DNA of 48,402 nt from a virus: positions 1 to 48,402 of IMG/VR virus record IMGVR_UViG_3300030339_000067; one strand, written 5' to 3'. Positions 71 to 13,606 of the stretch are shown here, piece after piece. The notes beneath the pieces were generated by a model that saw nothing but the letters and a program-made list of their open reading frames with translations, made no database searches and was not told where the DNA came from. The translations under genes were made by a program, and so were the position numbers. The stretch's first letter is position 1, and every line of letters starts with the position of its first letter.

Positions 71-108
71 AGAATGCCTCTTTCTCTTTATTATTTATTC
101 GTTACCTT

Positions 109-137
109 ATTATAACACAAAATGAAAAGGATGTCAA
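109..137 (-). promoter_or_regulatory. Leftward sigma-A promoter
   Basis: On the - strand, TTGACA (132-137) and TATAAT (109-114) are separated by 17 bp, with a TG one base upstream of the -10. Both boxes are perfect consensus. The AAAAGATT block just upstream of the -35 recurs before the promoters at 5005-5033, 5736-5764 and 6392-6420. It drives the partial gene at 1-70. Confidence 0.85.
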
Positions 138-147
138 TAACAATCTT

Positions 148-169
148 TTTATCTACTTTTTTTTAACAA
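148..169 (-). repeat. Single inverted copy of the 22-bp iteron
   Basis: The - strand here reads TTGTTAAAAAAAAGTAGATA followed by AA, matching the 22-bp repeats at 817-904 and 1562-1640. It lies 10 bp upstream of the -35 box of the leftward promoter (132-137), about one helical turn. The protein encoded at 964-1557 may therefore also act on the left-end promoter. Confidence 0.7.
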
Positions 170-3060: not shown

Positions 3061-3263
3061 AATGTTAACAAATCTCCCTAATAGGGAGGGTGTGGAGGAC
3101 TAGTCCCTATCAACTTTCACTTTAATTTTTTACCGTATTCGTCTCCTTTTTGAAATACTTTTCTCCTCTCTAATATAGATAATTCTAATCTCATTTCCAA
3201 TTTCTAAGGTAAACTACCTCTTGGGTATACTGATGCACATTTTATTAAAATTTAGGAGGCTTT
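3061..3263. other. Intergenic region with one short hairpin
   Basis: Apart from the hairpin at 3074-3088, the stretch is C/T-rich and holds no open frame. A TATACT at about 3225 lies 30-40 bp before the next gene but lacks a convincing -35 box, so no promoter is claimed. Confidence 0.4.
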
Positions 3264-3555: not shown

Positions 3556-3595
3556 AAGCCCTAGTCTTTTATAGACTAGGGCTTTCTGTTATTTC
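3556..3595 (+). terminator. Rho-independent terminator
   Basis: Perfect 11-bp stem, AAGCCCTAGTC (3556-3566) with its complement at 3574-3584, a 7-nt loop and the T-rich tail TCTGTTATTT. It ends the 3264 gene and insulates it from the promoter at 3643. Confidence 0.9.
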
Positions 3596-3642: not shown

Positions 3643-3671
3643 TTGACATTGTGCAGGTTTTGTGGTATAAT
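3643..3671 (+). promoter_or_regulatory. Strong promoter opening onto a non-coding region
   Basis: TTGACA (3643-3648), a 17-bp spacer and TATAAT (3666-3671), both perfect. The expected start, about 3678, falls one or two bases before a 9-bp perfect hairpin at 3680-3706. No protein gene follows on this strand. Confidence 0.85.
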
Positions 3672-3678
3672 CGTAGCT

Positions 3679-4572
3679 AGACCACCTGCTTCGAAGACAG
3701 GTGGTCGTTGTCATAGGGACGATTCGAACCTCACACCTCGTTTATAGTATGCACCATACACCACTACCACTACCAAGCTGCGGGATATAGTCCTTCGATC
3801 CCTTCATTTTTATCATCAGGATCTCGAAGGAAGCACCCAATAAGATATGTTTTCCGACCTTTTCTACTCTTTGCGGAACCTGAGTTTGTGCTAGGCTTCT
3901 ATCTTAAGCTAAAAGTCAGGGGAACGAAGCTGTGCTTTCCTGAGGTAGCTATTCCTCAAGCAGTAACTGAGCCGCATTTAAAGTCGTAGGCTAATTGACT
4001 CACTTAGAGTTCCCTTTTCGCACTAATAGGTGGCAGCCAAGGCTCAATATATGGCTATTCGCTGCTGCTCACGCGTCCAAACCGCATTGGGGCCTGATTC
4101 TTCATCCCTATCCCAAGCTTACTGGCGGTTGCTGGGTCCATAATTAGTATCCCAACTCTTTATAATGGAGATTCACTCACAAGATCCACTTTAACGGGTA
4201 GATCAGTCCGTAGGCTGCGGGTGGACCTGACTTCCCACATTTAACGCTGAAAGCCTATCGCGCACCTTTAATACTATATCCTGCGGGCCTCCCATTTGGC
4301 CAGCGATCAGGATGCGTTTTTTCTTAACCGGTGAAGGCGCTACCCTACCATGCCCATAGGCTGCAGCCAGACTGTGAGCCACATTCAACGCAGTTTACTC
4401 TTCGCGCACCTTTTCTCTCAAGAGTGTGCGGATTCAAGGACCGCACTTCAAAGCCAAGCCTGTCAAGTTACTTGGGACTCTTGATGATCCTTCCCGGGGA
4501 AACATCAGCTTTCCTTAACCTCCATAATCTAAACCCTTTTCGTCTCAGGTCTATAGGAGAGGACGTTGATGG
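3679..4572 (+). ncRNA. Candidate large structured non-coding RNA (about 0.9 kb)
   Basis: Begins with GACCACCTG/CAGGTGGTC (3680-3688 with 3698-3706). Further stems seen: the CCTTCG-containing hairpin about 3792-3831; a domain closed by GGGAAC/GTTCCC (about 3919 and 4009); AACCGC with GCGGTT enclosing TTGGG/CCCAA (about 4079-4131); ATCCTG/CAGGAT enclosing GGCC/GGCC (about 4278-4315); CGCGCAC/GTGTGCG near 4403-4430, which needs a G-U pair on the + strand; and GTGCGG/CCGCAC near 4426-4446. Frames at 4203-4388 (-) and 4331-4576 (+) look spurious. Size, phage context and structure recall the ornate large RNAs (GOLLD, ROOL), but no consensus could be tested. No terminator was found, so the 3' end is a guess. 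Transcription on the - strand is not excluded. Confidence 0.5.
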
Positions 4573-4758
4573 TTAATATATTGCAAGAACTTCATACTCG
4601 ATAATGCCATAACCCATAGACTTTGCGAGCCTACCAAGAGCATCACCGAGAGTCTTTGCTGGAATATTGAAGATATTTGTCATGCGGAACTTCACCCAAG
4701 AGTTAGGGTCTCCGCAAGACAAATCCCACTCTGTGACGAGGATTTTATACTCATGCAT
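4573..4758 (-). CDS. Hypothetical protein
   Basis: Encodes 61 residues with a helical C-terminal half (KTLGDALGRLAKSMGYG). Start and upstream stop overlap (TAATG), so it is translationally coupled to the gene at 4758-4964 and shares its promoter at 5005-5033. No family recognised. It ends right against the structured region at 3679-4572, with no visible terminator. Confidence 0.65.
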   Translation of the reverse strand: MHEYKILVTEWDLSCGDPNSWVKFRMTNIFNIPAKTLGDALGRLAKSMGYGIIEYEVLAIY

Positions 4759-4964
4759 TAGTCGAGTACCTCATCCAAGTCTACAATTACGAGGCAACCC
4801 TCAATGGCGTAGAATGCACGACCAGTAAGTGTCATAGCGATAAAGACTGTGCCGATACCTGTGGCTGCATGAACACCATCAGGGAGTCGAACGAAATCAT
4901 CACCTTCAAGATTAATCGGAGTGAATGAGCCAGGACATGGCATTACGTAGAAGACCTCGCGCAT
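4758..4964 (-). CDS. Hypothetical protein
   Basis: Encodes 68 residues from an ATG at 4962-4964 preceded by GAGG. A longer frame to 5060 runs through the promoter and is rejected. The sequence is beta-rich and hydrophobic in the middle (TGIGTVFIAMTLTGRAF) and ends acidic (VIVDLDEVLD). First gene of a two-gene leftward operon. No family recognised. Confidence 0.65.
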   Translation of the reverse strand: MREVFYVMPCPGSFTPINLEGDDFVRLPDGVHAATGIGTVFIAMTLTGRAFYAIEGCLVIVDLDEVLD

Positions 4965-5004
4965 GGTATTCCTCATTTCTTTCTTTTGTTTTTTTCTATA
5001 TCTT

Positions 5005-5033
5005 ATTATAACACATTTTTGAAAAGTTGTCAA
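5005..5033 (-). promoter_or_regulatory. Consensus leftward promoter
   Basis: On the - strand, TTGACA (5028-5033), a 17-bp spacer and TATAAT (5005-5010) with upstream TGT. Two bases beyond the -35 begins the left arm of the long inverted repeat 5036-5152. Drives 4964-4573. Confidence 0.87.
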
Positions 5034-5035
5034 TG

Positions 5036-5152
5036 AAAATCTTTTAAGTTGACTTCTCAAATTTTTTTGAAAAGGCTCAGTTGAATGGCCATCCAGAGCT
5101 GAGACAACGGCGGGTTACGCGTCACCACTGAGAAGCCAACTTAAAAGATTTT
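5036..5152. repeat. Long-armed inverted repeat with two inner hairpins
   Basis: Arms 5036-5059 and 5129-5152 are complementary at 23 of 24 positions. Between them lie CTCAG/CTGAG (about 5077-5104) and a hairpin around GGTTACGCGTCACC (about 5113-5126), giving a three-way-junction layout. The left arm abuts the -35 box of the leftward promoter. It could be a 3' UTR RNA structure of the gene at 5299-5694 or a DNA element of the promoter. Confidence 0.65.
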
Positions 5153-5298: not shown

Positions 5299-5694
5299 TT
5301 ACTCCTTGGGCTTACGCTTCTTGGTAAGCACGACTTCGAACTTATCTCCACCAATTTCGAAAGCAATCATTCGCTCGATATTGGTAATAGTGACATTCTC
5401 AACGTGCTCAGTGCCCGTGATGAATTCAGAAAGGGCAGCAATAACTGCACGCTTAACGAGATCGGGCTTGCGCTCTGGAGCCTTGTGGGCAACTTTCTCC
5501 CCCGTTGCCTTAGCACCAGTGCCTGCGGCCTTAGCCTTAACTGTCATGGCGACAATCTCATCGTTAGTAATGAAGTCATTGTCTGACAGGTAGAGGTCAA
5601 TAGCTTCCTGACGAGTGATGCCGAGATTGTGCATGCTGGTGTCAATGAAGTTGTCAGGGATGTTGATATTCTTACCATCGAGATCGTAGCGCAT
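5299..5694 (-). CDS. Conserved phage-type hypothetical protein
   Basis: Encodes 131 residues, with AAAGGAG before the ATG at 5692-5694. The N-terminus (MRYDLDGKNINIPDNFID, then LGITRQEAIDLYLSDND) has a layout often met in phages of Gram-positive bacteria: a short beta-hairpin followed by a helix. An Ala/Lys-rich linker (residues about 52-75) leads to a second alpha/beta part and a basic tail (TKKRKPKE). Function unknown. It has its own promoter (5736-5764), and long inverted repeats flank it on both sides. Confidence 0.7.
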   Translation of the reverse strand: MRYDLDGKNINIPDNFIDTSMHNLGITRQEAIDLYLSDNDFITNDEIVAMTVKAKAAGTGAKATGEKVAHKAPERKPDLVKRAVIAALSEFITGTEHVENVTITNIERMIAFEIGGDKFEVVLTKKRKPKE

Positions 5695-5735
5695 GCGGCA
5701 GCTCCTTTTTAGATTTTTCTTTTTTCGTTATCTCT

Positions 5736-5764
5736 ATTATAACATATTTTTTATTTTTTGTCAA
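5736..5764 (-). promoter_or_regulatory. Consensus leftward promoter
   Basis: On the - strand, TTGACA (5759-5764), a 17-bp spacer and TATAAT (5736-5741) with TGT before it. The AAAAGATTTT block upstream of the -35 is shared with the promoter at 5005-5033. Drives the gene at 5694-5299. Confidence 0.87.
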
Positions 5765-5776
5765 ACAAAATCTTTT

Positions 5777-5867
5777 AAGTTAGCTTTTTAGCCGTTAGTT
5801 CCACTGAGTCGCGACTCGTGGCGGGATGGCCTGTCCCTTGTAGAACTAAGGGCCAAAAAACTAACTT
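5777..5867. repeat. Long-armed inverted repeat, three-way-junction layout
   Basis: Arms 5777-5793 and 5851-5867 match at 15 of 17 positions. The stem continues inward as TTAGTTC/GAACTAA (about 5795-5801 and 5843-5849). Two hairpins sit inside: GAGTC/GACTC (about 5806-5817) and GGGA/TCCC (about 5823-5837). It lies between the stop of the gene at 5945 and the -35 of the next promoter, the same position as 5036-5152. Confidence 0.65.
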
Positions 5868-5944: not shown

Positions 5945-6319
5945 TTACTCTGCGGCGTCAACCTCCGCACGATTAGCGAGGCTGAACTTAGTCTTCTCCT
6001 TGCCCTTGCCCTCGACGCGGATAACAATCTCCGCAGCCACAAGCTGCGTAAGCAGCTGGCTGGCCTTCTGGACTGAGATGTCCTCGGTACCTGCAACCTC
6101 AGTCGCAGTCAGACCATCAAAGCCAATGAGAGTCTCGACAATACTCTCCTTGATCTCAGCATTAGCCTCCTGAGCCTTCGTGGGCTTGCGGTCTGCAGTC
6201 TTGCGCTTGTCGATAAGAGCAATCTGAGCACCGATGAAGTCTGCTCGATCCGTCTCGCCGAGACCAGTCAGGATCTCCTGGACAGCAACAAACTGGTTGC
6301 GCTTCGTAACCTTCGTCAC
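5945..6319 (-). CDS. Winged-helix-type protein, paralogue A
   Basis: Encodes 124 residues if started at the GTG at 6317-6319. That choice aligns the TK-K-F-x5-I opening with the paralogues at 7029-7382 and 10579-10953 and gives the same length as the latter. The GAGAGG site is rather far from it (about 14 nt), so the start is not certain. Layout: helical N-terminal half with IALIDKRKTADRKPTKAQ, then a winged-helix-like half (ESIVETLIGFDGLTATEVAG, SVQKASQLLTQLVAAEIV). Family members of this shape are common in phages of gut Bacillota and lack a defined function; DNA binding is inferred. Confidence 0.72.
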   Translation of the reverse strand: MTKVTKRNQFVAVQEILTGLGETDRADFIGAQIALIDKRKTADRKPTKAQEANAEIKESIVETLIGFDGLTATEVAGTEDISVQKASQLLTQLVAAEIVIRVEGKGKEKTKFSLANRAEVDAAE

Positions 6320-6391
6320 CTTAATACACCGAACCTCTCTGTTTATTCTGTGGAACACACCTTTTATGCATTCCCTTTTTCCTTATATCTC

Positions 6392-6420
6392 ATTATAACA
6401 CATTTCAAAAAAAGTGTCAA
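6392..6420 (-). promoter_or_regulatory. Consensus leftward promoter
   Basis: On the - strand, TTGACA (6415-6420), a 17-bp spacer and TATAAT (6392-6397) with TGT before it. AAAAGATTT lies just upstream of the -35. Drives the winged-helix gene starting at 6319. Confidence 0.87.
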
Positions 6421-6671
6421 TAGAAATCTTTTGAGCTAGGCGATATAAGGCTTATGGGGTCTATATTGGGAATTTTATAGTCTATATAGAAGGGTCACGA
6501 GGTAAGGCAAAAAATGCCTATAGGATGTTTTCTGTCAAATTTTGGCTCGCTTGCGAGCCAACAAATCTCACCCTCAACCTCAGGGTGAGACTGCGGGGCT
6601 GAGTTTTACAACTGACATTTAATAACAGCAGCTACCTGTTAACCATTTATTTAAATGTAGGGTAGGACTCG
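6421..6671. other. Hairpin-rich gap including a GC hairpin module
   Basis: No gene. Contains TGGCTCGC/GCGAGCCA (6543-6560), then TCTCACCCT/AGGGTGAGA (6566-6590), then ACATTTAA/TTAAATGT (6615-6658) enclosing TAACAG/CTGTTA. The GC hairpin followed by a second hairpin matches the modules near 7574, 9054, 10362, 11565, 12442 and 13540. Here no + strand promoter precedes it, so it may only be the 3' end of the 6672-6917 transcript. Confidence 0.6.
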
Positions 6672-7028: not shown

Positions 7029-7382
7029 TTACTCCGCGAGAGAGAAGTAGGCTACCTTCTTAACCTCGTCCCTGACAACCTCGCCGCTGTCCACAAGCTT
7101 CTTCAGGAGGGCCGTAGTCCTCTGAATCGAGAAGTCTGCGAGAGTTCCAACATCTGCGGCGCGGATGCCCTCATCAGACAGGACAGTCACAACCTTGTCC
7201 ATGTTGGCACGAACCTCGGCAGCGTGCTTGGCGCTGCCCTTGCCATCTGCGGACTTCTTGTTGAGCAACTCCAGCTCGTGCTTCAAACCCTCCACCACAG
7301 CAGGGGTTCCGGGGACATTCGCAGCCGCAACAATTGCGATAGCAGCGGTGAACATCTCGCGCTTGGTCATCTTCTTGTTCAT
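7029..7382 (-). CDS. Winged-helix-type protein, paralogue B
   Basis: Encodes 117 residues from the ATG at 7380-7382, 7 nt after AAAGG. A GTG two codons earlier is less well spaced. Opening MTKREMFTAAIAIV, then GLKHELELLNKKS, then the winged-helix half (VVTVLSDEGIRAADVGTLA, IQRTTALLKKLVDSGEVV, VAYFSLAE). It aligns with paralogues A (5945-6319) and C (10579-10953). Own promoter at 7439-7467. Likely DNA- or nucleoprotein-binding; specific role unknown. Confidence 0.75.
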   Translation of the reverse strand: MNKKMTKREMFTAAIAIVAAANVPGTPAVVEGLKHELELLNKKSADGKGSAKHAAEVRANMDKVVTVLSDEGIRAADVGTLADFSIQRTTALLKKLVDSGEVVRDEVKKVAYFSLAE

Positions 7383-7438
7383 GGTCACGCCTTTCGTTTG
7401 GAGGCTCCCGCCTCACTTCCTTCTTTCTCAACAAAACC

Positions 7439-7467: not shown

Positions 7468-7573
7468 CCCCAAATAGCAAATAAACTTAAATTAATTTCG
7501 GGAAATGAAGATTAATCAAGATTTTTCGCTGTTTTGGGCGAAAAAAGGTGGTTTTGGCACGATATTTGAAATT

Positions 7574-7618
7574 TTGGCCCGCACGCGGGCCAATTTCATG
7601 CATAATTACATGAAATTG
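7574..7618. other. GC hairpin plus second hairpin (terminator-like module)
   Basis: TTGGCCCGC/GCGGGCCAA (7574-7593) is followed by CAATTTCATG/CATGAAATTG (7591-7618). On the - strand the GC stem follows the stop of the gene at 7626 by about 35 nt and leads into AAAATTT, so it can act as a weak terminator. It belongs to the repeated two-hairpin set of this block but has no + strand promoter in front. Confidence 0.6.
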
Positions 7619-9051: not shown

Positions 9052-9140
9052 TTCGGCGCGTCCACGCGCCGCGCATTTTCCCATAGATTTGTCAAGTGTT
9101 TTTTTGAGAAAAAAAATCTCCCTTTCGGGAGACCTTTTTT
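9052..9140 (+). ncRNA. Candidate small RNA, about 90 nt
   Basis: Begins with CGGCGCG/CGCGCCG around a TCCA loop (9054-9071), has an unpaired A/T-rich middle and ends with the TCTCCC/GGGAGA terminator and T6 run (9117-9140). Its 3' end meets the 3' end of the exonuclease gene on the other strand. It has a complete promoter-to-terminator unit and no reading frame, making it the best-defined member of the four-locus RNA family. Confidence 0.6.
9109..9140. terminator. Bidirectional terminator
   Basis: Stem TCTCCC (9117-9122) with GGGAGA (9127-9132). T6 follows on the + strand (9135-9140), and eight A on the + side (9109-9116) give T8 on the - strand. It ends both the small RNA and the exonuclease gene. 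Confidence 0.88.
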
Positions 9141-10359: not shown

Positions 10360-10457
10360 TTCGCGCCGTGGGCGGCGCGCCAGCAAATTTCATGCCAACT
10401 TTCTAGAAAAAAAAATAAAACAAAACTCCCCACAAGGCTTGACCAAGTGGGGAGTCC
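10360..10457 (+). ncRNA. Candidate small RNA of cassette 2
   Basis: Starts with CGCGCCG/CGGCGCG around TGGG (10362-10379). An A-rich linker follows, then ACTCCCCAC/GTGGGGAGT (10425-10455). The second hairpin has no T-run on this strand, so the 3' end is uncertain and the RNA may run on towards 10578. It lies opposite the 3' region of the winged-helix gene C. Confidence 0.5.
10403..10456 (-). terminator. Terminator for the winged-helix gene C transcript
   Basis: On the - strand, ACTCCCCAC (10455-10447) pairs with GTGGGGAGT (10433-10425). A T-rich stretch follows, the complement of the A-run at about 10406-10424. Confidence 0.82.
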
Positions 10458-10578: not shown

Positions 10579-10953
10579 TTAGGCGACCTTGAACATTGCC
10601 ACCTTTTTGATCATCTCGCGGGTGATGGTTCCATCGTCCACCATCTGCTTGAGCAGGGCCGTTGCCTTCTGAACCGGAATGTCCATCAGGACTCCAACGT
10701 CCGTGGCCCTCAGACCGTCCTCAGACCCCGTGAGAGCCGCAAGGATGTTGACCTTGATTTTCTCGTTTTCAATCTGAGCCTTCGTGGGCTTTCCGCTCGT
10801 ACCCGCGCGCTTGTCAAGCAGCTCGACCTCGTGGTCGATGAACGCGACCAGCTCTTCCCGCAGGTCTGCCTCGGCGTCAACAAACACGCCATCCAGAACG
10901 ATGTTCTTCATCTGGGCGAAACGGTCCTTCTTGGTGATGCGAGTGTCGGCCAT
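10579..10953 (-). CDS. Winged-helix-type protein, paralogue C
   Basis: Encodes 124 residues from the ATG at 10951-10953, preceded by AAGGAG. Helical N-terminal half with FIDHEVELLDKRAGTSGKPT, then the winged-helix half (VNILAALTGSEDGLRATD, PVQKATALLKQMVDDGTI, VAMFKVA). Best-preserved member of the A/B/C set; it shares the HE-LLDKR and KPTKAQ signatures with A. Proteins of this type are frequent in phages of gut Bacillota, without known function. Promoter 11001-11029, terminator 10403-10456. Confidence 0.78.
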   Translation of the reverse strand: MADTRITKKDRFAQMKNIVLDGVFVDAEADLREELVAFIDHEVELLDKRAGTSGKPTKAQIENEKIKVNILAALTGSEDGLRATDVGVLMDIPVQKATALLKQMVDDGTITREMIKKVAMFKVA

Positions 10954-11000
10954 TTTGACTCCTTTTCTTGTGGGCATCCCTGCCCTTTTACTGTGCCTTT

Positions 11001-11029
11001 ATTGTATCACATCGGTGTGACACTGACAA
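11001..11029 (-). promoter_or_regulatory. Leftward promoter overlapping an inverted-repeat arm
   Basis: On the - strand, TTGTCA (11024-11029), a 17-bp spacer and TACAAT (11001-11006). The -35 box is part of the arm (11021-11041) of the last stem-loop of the RNA locus 11021-11445. Drives paralogue C. Confidence 0.78.
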
Positions 11030-11445
11030 GAGAATAGTGTATTTTTTCTGCTGCAACTTCGCTCTGGGCATGACTCCAGAAACTAGGTGATGTTAGGTAG
11101 GGACTCACGGCCGCGCCCTAGGAAGACTGTCCCCTTACACTATCCTCTTGTCAATGTACATTAGAAAGAGAATGCTTGCATACTTGGACTTCCTCAAGTC
11201 ACCAGAGGTATTTTCTGAGTGAGCCTTTTCTCGTCGTTCGGGGAGGACAGCAGAGGAGGAAGTTTTGCAGCCCTGGGCCTAGTAGTGGAGTGGGTTCTCA
11301 CATTGGCAAGCATTCTCTTTTCAATGTGTTGAGAGGAGAAGGAGTCCGCCTTAGAAGTACCCTACTCGCGAGTCTCTTTGTTTCAGAGAGCGACCCGATT
11401 TTCCAGTAGGACTTGCTCTCAACTCCTTGATGCTTCCCTCTCAAC
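11021..11445 (-). ncRNA. Candidate tripartite structured RNA
   Basis: Reads leftward from the promoter at 11452-11480 and contains no credible frame. Three long-armed stem-loops follow each other. Unit 1: TTGAGAGG (11329-11336) with CCTCTCAA (11437-11444), continued by AAGGAGT/ACTCCTT and an inner CCTACT/AGTAGG. Unit 2: arms 11165-11179 and 11306-11320, 15 of 15 complementary, extended by ACATT/AATGT. Unit 3: arms 11025-11041 and 11136-11152, 16 of 17, enclosing TCTGG/CCAGA and TAGGG/CCCTA. The first stem starts 7 nt after the -10 box. Unit 3 ends inside the next promoter, so a 3' end near 11021 is assumed. Confidence 0.55.
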
Positions 11446-11549: not shown

Positions 11550-11617
11550 TTGACAAAAAAATTTTGGCCCGCGTGCGGGCCAGCAAAATCCGTGCCAATA
11601 GGATTTTACTGGTTTTT
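11550..11617 (+). terminator. GC hairpin and + strand terminator; degenerate copy of the RNA cassette
   Basis: TTGACA (11550-11555) is followed not by a -10 box but directly by TGGCCCGC/GCGGGCCA (11565-11582). Then comes an intrinsic terminator: CCAGCAAAATCC (11580-11591) with GGATTTTACTGG (11601-11612) and T5 (11613-11617). On the - strand the same hairpins follow the stop of the kinase-like gene and lead into a T7 run, so they probably also end that gene. Confidence 0.65.
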
Positions 11618-12439: not shown

Positions 12440-12515
12440 TTCGCGCCGCCCACGGCGCGTCGAAATGTCAAGAGACAATCTCAACTTTCTGAGATTGTCT
12501 CTTGGGTGCTTTTCT
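12440..12515 (+). ncRNA. Candidate small RNA of cassette 3
   Basis: CGCGCCG/CGGCGCG around CCCA (12442-12459), then a 14-bp perfect stem (12470-12483 with 12490-12503) followed by GGGTGCTTTTCTT, a plausible but not ideal terminator. It ends before the stop of the gene at 12527 on the other strand. No reading frame. Confidence 0.55.
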
Positions 12516-12964: not shown

Positions 12965-12993
12965 ATTGTAGCATAGTTCTTTGACACTGACAA
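12965..12993 (-). promoter_or_regulatory. Leftward promoter overlapping an inverted-repeat arm
   Basis: On the - strand, TTGTCA (12988-12993), a 17-bp spacer and TACAAT (12965-12970). The -35 and the GTGTCA beside it match the promoter at 11001-11029. Confidence 0.8.
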
Positions 12994-13143
12994 GGGGATA
13001 GTAGAAGGGGTGATTAGGTTGCAATCCCACTCACTGAAGTCAGACCCTTCACTTTCGCTGTTAGCTATCCTGCGAATGGTTTAAACAGGAGAGGCTTTTT
13101 CTCCCGCGGGTGTACTCTTCTCTCCTACTATCCTCTTGTCAAT
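12988..13143. repeat. Long-armed inverted repeat, paralogous to unit 3 of the 11021-11445 RNA
   Basis: Arms near 12989-13004 and 13125-13140 are complementary at 15 of 16 positions. Both arms resemble those at 11025-11041 and 11136-11152 (core GACAAGRGGATAGT). As there, one arm contains the -35 box of the adjacent leftward promoter. The interior, about 120 bp, differs in sequence between the two copies. Confidence 0.65.
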
Positions 13144-13274
13144 GTGCGGGGTACCATATCTCCCGCTCCCGAGGTCACTAATCACGCCCCACAAGGTACC
13201 ATCCGTCGATAGTACCTCACCGCCCGTCGGCAGTCAAGCCCTTAGGACTTGGTGGCTCGGCCCTTACTTATTCC
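13144..13274. other. Structured 3' region of the 13275 gene
   Basis: No gene. On the - strand the stretch directly follows the stop codon at 13275 and contains CAAGTC/GGCTTG (with one G-U pair), GGTAC/GTACC around 13185-13220, and a GTGGGG/CCCC-CAC stem at about 13143-13191. It continues into the inverted repeat 12988-13143, so gene and structures may form one transcript. Confidence 0.45.
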
Positions 13275-13538: not shown

Positions 13539-13606
13539 TTGGCCGCGCGCGGCCAGCAAGCAGTGTGCCAACTTCTGTCTAAGCGAGTTGTCACACTATT
13601 TGCTCA
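13539..13606 (+). ncRNA. Candidate small RNA of cassette 4
   Basis: TGGCCG/CGGCCA around CGCG (13540-13555), then a long interrupted stem from about 13556 to 13603: GCAA/TTGC, AGTGTG/CACACT and CAACT/AGTTG separated by symmetric mismatches. No T-run was found, so the 3' end is open. It lies before the stop of the gene at 13682 on the other strand. Confidence 0.5.

What the first reader, a model, noticed from the sequence alone, without database searches (positions are those of the whole stretch)
3643..4572. Strong promoter driving a 0.9-kb stem-rich region without a gene: candidate large phage RNA
Seen: a perfect TTGACA-17-TATAAT, a 9-bp hairpin 8 nt after the -10, many nested stems (GGGAAC/GTTCCC domain, AACCGC/GCGGTT, ATCCTG/CAGGAT, CGCGCAC/GTGTGCG) and no plausible protein. 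Known: phages of Bacillota can carry ornate RNAs of similar size (GOLLD, ROOL). Inference: this is such an RNA or a new class. One stem needs a G-U pair on the + strand, in line with the promoter direction.
Basis: partly seen in the sequence, partly recalled or inferred. Interest (0 to 1): 0.82.

Follow-up and report, generated by a model that had tools for sequence, protein, structure and literature searches.

The report
New structured phage RNA, opposite strand
Between two facing gene groups this phage carries a previously undescribed structured RNA, shared with only two other known phage lineages; it is encoded on the strand opposite to the one first proposed, and the strong promoter seen there probably makes a small RNA running against it.

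Summary
The perfect TTGACA-17-TATAAT at 3643-3671, the hairpin after it and the absence of a gene in 3680-4572 are real. The listed stems are present, but folding energy does not exceed shuffled sequence (z -1.3 on +, -1.0 on -). Homologues decide. After 8 scans of IMG/VR, 2 of GTDB genomes and searches of GenBank phages, two other phage lineages carry the region in the same place (L009; L044/L048). Shared are a 5' domain, a three-way-junction module (one copy in each relative, two in the window) and the hairpin plus promoter. Stems change compensatorily, and G-U pairs place the conserved core on the MINUS strand (alignment fold z -5.1 and -3.8, against -4.3 and -1.9 on +). Minus-strand promoters precede it in all three phages; in one, two of them start RNAs with no gene between. 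Rfam (GOLLD, ROOL and OLE included) gives nothing. Best reading: a rare new structured phage RNA of about 0.4-0.9 kb, made as the 3' part of a minus-strand early transcript, with a conserved opposing promoter at its 3' end that probably makes a short antisense RNA. Function is inferred only.

The parts
3680..4572 (-). Structured noncoding RNA core, read 4572 to 3680; 5' end abuts the stop codon of ORF 4573-4758
   Evidence: Homologous segments in the same place and orientation in L044 and L009; no coding; alignment folds favour minus strand
4503..4571 (-). 5' domain: closing stem CATCA/TGATG, TCC/GGA, TCTCC/GGAGG, ACCT/GGGT around conserved internal loop TATAG / TTAGATTAT
   Evidence: 73.7% over 76 nt with L044 (E 1.2e-9); stems change compensatorily in the three phages; RNAalifold z -5.1 on minus, -4.3 on + with unedited MAFFT alignment
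4426..4446 (-). Hairpin GTGCGG/CCGCAC before module 1
   Evidence: Stem in same position with unrelated sequence in L044 (GTAACTG/CAGTTAC) and L009 (CCAGC/GCTGG)
4359..4410 (-). Module 1, three-way junction GGT[GCGC..GCGT]TGAA[TGTGGC..GCTGCA]GCC
   Evidence: Covariance model R1 (training member), 63.1 bits; 92% of cells paired against 30-50% when slid
4278..4313 (-).
4213..4266 (-). Module 2, second copy of the three-way junction, 144 nt from the first
   Evidence: Covariance model R1 (training member), 65.6 bits; tandem similarity to module 1
4033..4061 (-). Hairpin AGCCA/TGGCT with conserved loop (CGAATAGCCATATATTGAGCCTTGGCTGC), followed by a possible degenerate third module
   Evidence: 93% over 29 nt with L009, where it directly precedes the module; third module not found by R1
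3680..3706 (-). Terminal hairpin, 7-nt loop CTTCGAA (UUCGAA in all three phages)
   Evidence: Stem sequence replaced compensatorily in L044 and L009; folds about equally well on both strands
3643..3671 (+). Perfect sigma-70 promoter facing the 3' end of the RNA; probable antisense start near 3676-3679
   Evidence: 12/12 here and in L044 (10184-10156), 11/12 in L009 (4679-4651)
3556..3584 (-). Bidirectional terminator; likely 3' end of the minus-strand transcript
   Evidence: candidate minus-sense terminator also past the hairpin in L009 (4801-4819); one in L044 seen by eye only
5005..5033 (-). Perfect promoter, likely start of the minus-strand transcript that ends in the RNA
   Evidence: counterpart in L044 at 9104-9132
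4573..4964 (-). Two small ORFs (4758-4964, 68 aa; 4573-4758, 61 aa) between that promoter and the RNA
   Evidence: no Pfam match above cut-off; L044 has two ORFs of other sequence there, L009 none between promoters and RNA

Best explanation
A structured noncoding RNA of a phage of Bacillota, on the minus strand. A transcript starting at the early promoter 5033-5005 reads two small ORFs, then the RNA (4572-3680), and ends at the bidirectional terminator 3584-3556. The RNA has a 5' domain with a conserved internal loop, two copies of a three-way-junction module each preceded by a hairpin, other less conserved stems and a terminal hairpin with a UUCGAA loop. It most likely acts as an RNA in trans during early infection, as a scaffold or ribonucleoprotein core, because the upstream ORFs differ between phages while the RNA persists, and in one lineage the parts are made from their own promoters without ORFs. 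The + promoter at 3643 most likely makes a short antisense RNA over the terminal hairpin that limits or processes the main RNA by loop-loop pairing or transcriptional collision. Shown: conservation, structure, strand preference, promoters in sequence. Inferred: transcription, trans action, antisense role.
For: Homologous noncoding regions at the same place between facing gene groups in two other phage lineages. Compensatory stem changes in the 5' domain, module and terminal hairpin. Strand: with plain MAFFT alignments minus beats plus (5' domain z -5.08 v -4.33; module -3.80 v -1.87); in hand-chosen stems all 12 wobble pairs are G-U on minus and A-C on plus (biased by choice on minus). Minus promoters in all three; in L009 two of them (3188-3216, 4329-4357) start noncoding segments. 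G over C and A over T on the minus strand in every homologue. No Rfam family.
Against: Only three lineages, so covariation is thin: shuffling partners reaches the module's covariation score in 40 of 500. The window copy alone does not fold better than shuffled sequence. The + promoter is better conserved in position than any single minus promoter near the RNA. A stem near the start of the + transcript in L009 and L044 pairs better on + (tandem UG/GU, read by eye). No transcript data.
Confidence: 0.66

Rival explanations
1. One reading: a 0.9-kb structured RNA on the + strand, started by the promoter at 3643, with the hairpin as a 5' cap.
For: Perfect conserved promoter directly before the hairpin in three phages; the hairpin folds about equally well on +; a stem near the + start in L009 and L044 needs G-U on + (by eye).
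Against: The 5' domain and module fold better on minus; L009 has minus promoters inside the region; no terminator on + near 4570; a + transcript would run antisense into the minus genes.
Confidence: 0.13
2. Two overlapping RNAs of similar weight: the minus RNA and a + strand small RNA of about 100-150 nt with its own conserved structure, forming a sense-antisense regulatory pair like plasmid RNA I/RNA II. This is a stronger form of the antisense step in the best explanation and overlaps with it.
For: Promoters on both sides conserved; UUCGAA loop fits the YUNR loop rule of antisense systems (own knowledge); near the + start some pairs fit + only.
Against: Length and end of the + RNA unknown, no convincing + terminator; no data on pairing or effect.
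Confidence: 0.35
3. A transcription barrier: conserved DNA or RNA signals that end and separate two facing early operons, with no RNA function in trans.
For: Lies exactly where + and - genes meet, with a bidirectional terminator.
Against: Far larger than needed; conserved three-way junctions, tandem modules and conserved loops; split between two transcripts in L009.
Confidence: 0.12
4. A divergent member of GOLLD, ROOL or OLE.
For: Size, phage setting, module repetition and a self-complementary loop recall them.
Against: No covariance-model match at E up to 5 (window) or 3 (relatives); no tRNA in the window.
Confidence: 0.03

Closest known systems
GOLLD RNA
   Same: Large structured RNA of phages, unknown function, one region more conserved than the rest (PMC12286853)
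   Different: No covariance-model match; no tRNA in the window; only part of the length is conserved and a module is repeated
ROOL RNA (RF03087)
   Same: Phage-borne, about 0.6 kb, complex structure, function unknown (PMC12286853)
   Different: No match in window or relatives
OLE RNA
   Same: Large bacterial RNA with many helices
   Different: No match; OLE is chromosomal and tied to protein partners (own knowledge)
Plasmid RNA I / RNA II type sense-antisense pairs
   Same: Structured RNA overlapped at one end by an opposing strong promoter; hairpin loop shared by both strands
   Different: No sign of a replication primer role; antisense RNA not shown

Membership tests
GOLLD | Match to the Rfam covariance model (conserved 3' region) | tested here: not met
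   no match at gathering score nor at E up to 5 or 3
GOLLD | Location near or containing phage tRNAs (frequent, not strict) | tested here: not met
   no tRNA in the window (a fragment, so not excluded for the whole phage)
ROOL | Match to the Rfam covariance model | tested here: not met
OLE | Match to the Rfam covariance model | tested here: not met
Large ornate phage RNAs (works like) | Extensive structure supported by covariation | tested here: inconclusive
   5' domain, module and hairpin supported, the rest of the 0.9 kb not; three lineages only
Large ornate phage RNAs (works like) | Homo-oligomer or cage formation | not testable with these tools
   needs native gel or cryo-EM
Sense-antisense RNA pair | Transcripts from both strands overlapping at a loop | not testable with these tools
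   promoters on both sides conserved; no RNA-seq

The most novel reading that the evidence does not exclude
A new class of large phage RNA built from a repeatable three-way-junction module (one copy in each relative, two in the window, perhaps a third decayed one), sometimes split into two separately transcribed RNAs, and controlled by an opposing antisense promoter at its 3' hairpin.
Probability: 0.4. Interest if true: 0.72.

Novelty: new member of a known kind. Interest (0 to 1): 0.56.

Why it matters
Large structured phage RNAs are few and their functions unknown. This one is rare, not in Rfam, and its size and module count vary between phages, so its working unit can be sought by comparison. 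It also shows that a strong promoter before a stem-rich region can belong to the opposite strand.

Tried and rejected
Motif scans of IMG/VR with the AGCCA..TGGCT loop, the module core and the 5' domain: besides the three lineages the hits lay in reading frames or lacked the other motifs; one strong-looking module hit (L050, E 2.5e-4) lies in an open frame. GTDB genomes: 15 module-core hits, none accepted. Protein neighbours (terminase, regulator, 131-aa protein) led to the same lineages and to phages without the RNA (L062, Enterococcus phage H1). Single-sequence folding does not decide the strand. GATATAGTCC on + recalled a group I intron, but Rfam gives no match. A coding origin is rejected: stops in most frames, and an extra base in L044 breaks the one frame that looked shared. 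A third module around 4000 (TTTAAATGCGG) was seen by eye only; the model does not find it.

Full report
What is there. The window is a 48.4-kb IMG/VR virus record. Its large terminase is 45-47% identical to those of 120-140-kb phages of Enterococcus, Geobacillus and Alicyclobacillus, so the host is probably a member of the Bacillota (inference). Genes up to 3551 lie on the + strand, genes from 4573 to about 15 kb on the - strand. The finding lies where the two groups face each other. The promoter, hairpin and lack of a gene are as reported. Rfam has no match for the window, nor for this stretch at E up to 5 except chance hits to unrelated short families. The whole stretch folds little better than shuffled sequence on either strand, and short windows mostly do not.

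Homologues. A terminase search gave four contigs; one of them, L009/G002, shares a 29-nt stretch at 93%. Reading both showed further shared segments. A scan for the core GTGCGCG-N-GCGTTRAATGYG then brought L044 and its near-identical copy L048. L044, L009 and the window share gene order: a homologue of the 925-1557 regulator on one side and of the 5299-5694 protein on the other. Between them lies the noncoding region: about 900 nt in the window, about 370 nt in L044, and two pieces in L009 (about 1,020 and 270 nt). L044 against the window: 73.7% over 76 nt (E 1e-9), 69% over 59 nt at the hairpin and promoter, 82% over 33 nt in the module, in the same order and orientation. In L009 the 5' domain and terminal hairpin form one piece and the module lies in another, upstream.

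Structure and strand. Written on the minus strand, the 5' domain has stems TCC/GGA, ACC/GGT, CCC/GGG (window, L044, L009) and ACCT/GGGT, TCCC/GGGA, GGCT/AGTC, around an unpaired TATMG / TKAGATTAT. The module is GGU[GCGC..GCGU]URAA[UGYGG..CCRCA]GCC; its inner helices vary in sequence and its loops in length. The window has two copies, 144 nt apart, L044 one, L009 one. A covariance model from the four copies finds just these in 194 kb of related sequence, the next match scoring 13 bits against 58-66; the copies match by construction, so this shows specificity, not independent proof. The terminal hairpin keeps a UUCGAA loop while its stem is replaced. With MAFFT alignments made without regard to structure, the minus strand folds better than the plus: 5' domain -37.4 (z -5.08) v -31.5 (z -4.33), module -32.3 (z -3.80) v -21.6 (z -1.87); the hairpin region does not discriminate clearly. 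Hand-adjusted alignments widen the gap but were adjusted on the minus strand. In one search all 12 wobble pairs are G-U on minus and A-C on plus; the stems were chosen on minus, so that number is biased, the MAFFT comparison less so.

Transcription signals. Minus promoters: window 5033-5005 and L044 9104-9132 (both perfect), L009 3188-3216 (11/12) and 4329-4357 (12/12), the last two with only noncoding sequence behind them. Past the terminal hairpin and the opposing promoter lie minus-sense terminator-like sites in the window (3584-3556) and L009 (4801-4819), and a candidate in L044 read by eye. The opposing + promoter is 12/12, 12/12 and 11/12 in the three phages, so it too is probably under selection. 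In the window and L044 the RNA follows two small ORFs directly after the stop codon, but these ORFs differ in sequence.

Interpretation. The simplest account is a structured RNA on the minus strand, carried as the 3' part of an early transcript in two phages and made from its own promoters in the third, with a conserved antisense promoter at its 3' end. That it acts in trans, and that the antisense RNA controls it, are inferences. It resembles GOLLD and ROOL in setting and size; these are described as large RNAs of phages and prophages, often near tRNA islands, that form RNA-only cages and have unknown functions (PMC12286853). It is not a member by any covariance model tested. I therefore rate it a new member of a known kind rather than a new kind.

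Limits. Three lineages give thin covariation. Much of the window's 0.9 kb, between the modules and the terminal hairpin, has no counterpart in L044 and no supported structure. No expression data were available.

Noticed in passing
window 5036-5152, 11020-11157, 11158-11327, 12984-13145: Intergenic elements of about 100-170 nt closed by 22-33-bp inverted repeats, three of them just upstream of minus-strand promoter-like sites; L044 has a similar one after its promoter at 9104. They may be further structured RNAs or processing sites.
   Followed up: no
window 80-150, 4976-5050, 5699-5783, 6358-6440: A repeated block of about 70 bp with a minus-strand early promoter (AAAAGATTTT..TTGACA-17-TATAAT) shared with the related phages.
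   Followed up: partly
window 6537-6565, 7569-7597, 9054-9071, 10362-10379, 11559-11587, 12442-12459, 13540-13555: Recurrent short GC-rich palindromes (GGCCCGCGTGCGGGCC type) in intergenic spaces near promoter-like sites, perhaps terminators or operators.
   Followed up: no
window 5945-6358, 7029-7388, 10579-10977: Three paralogous small proteins, the first with a weak winged-helix match below cut-off, also multiplied in L009, L044 and L062.
   Followed up: partly
L029 1335-1834 and 3020-3420: The HAD-like gene at window 8454-9023 matches two places in the G002 contig, a possible duplication.
   Followed up: no
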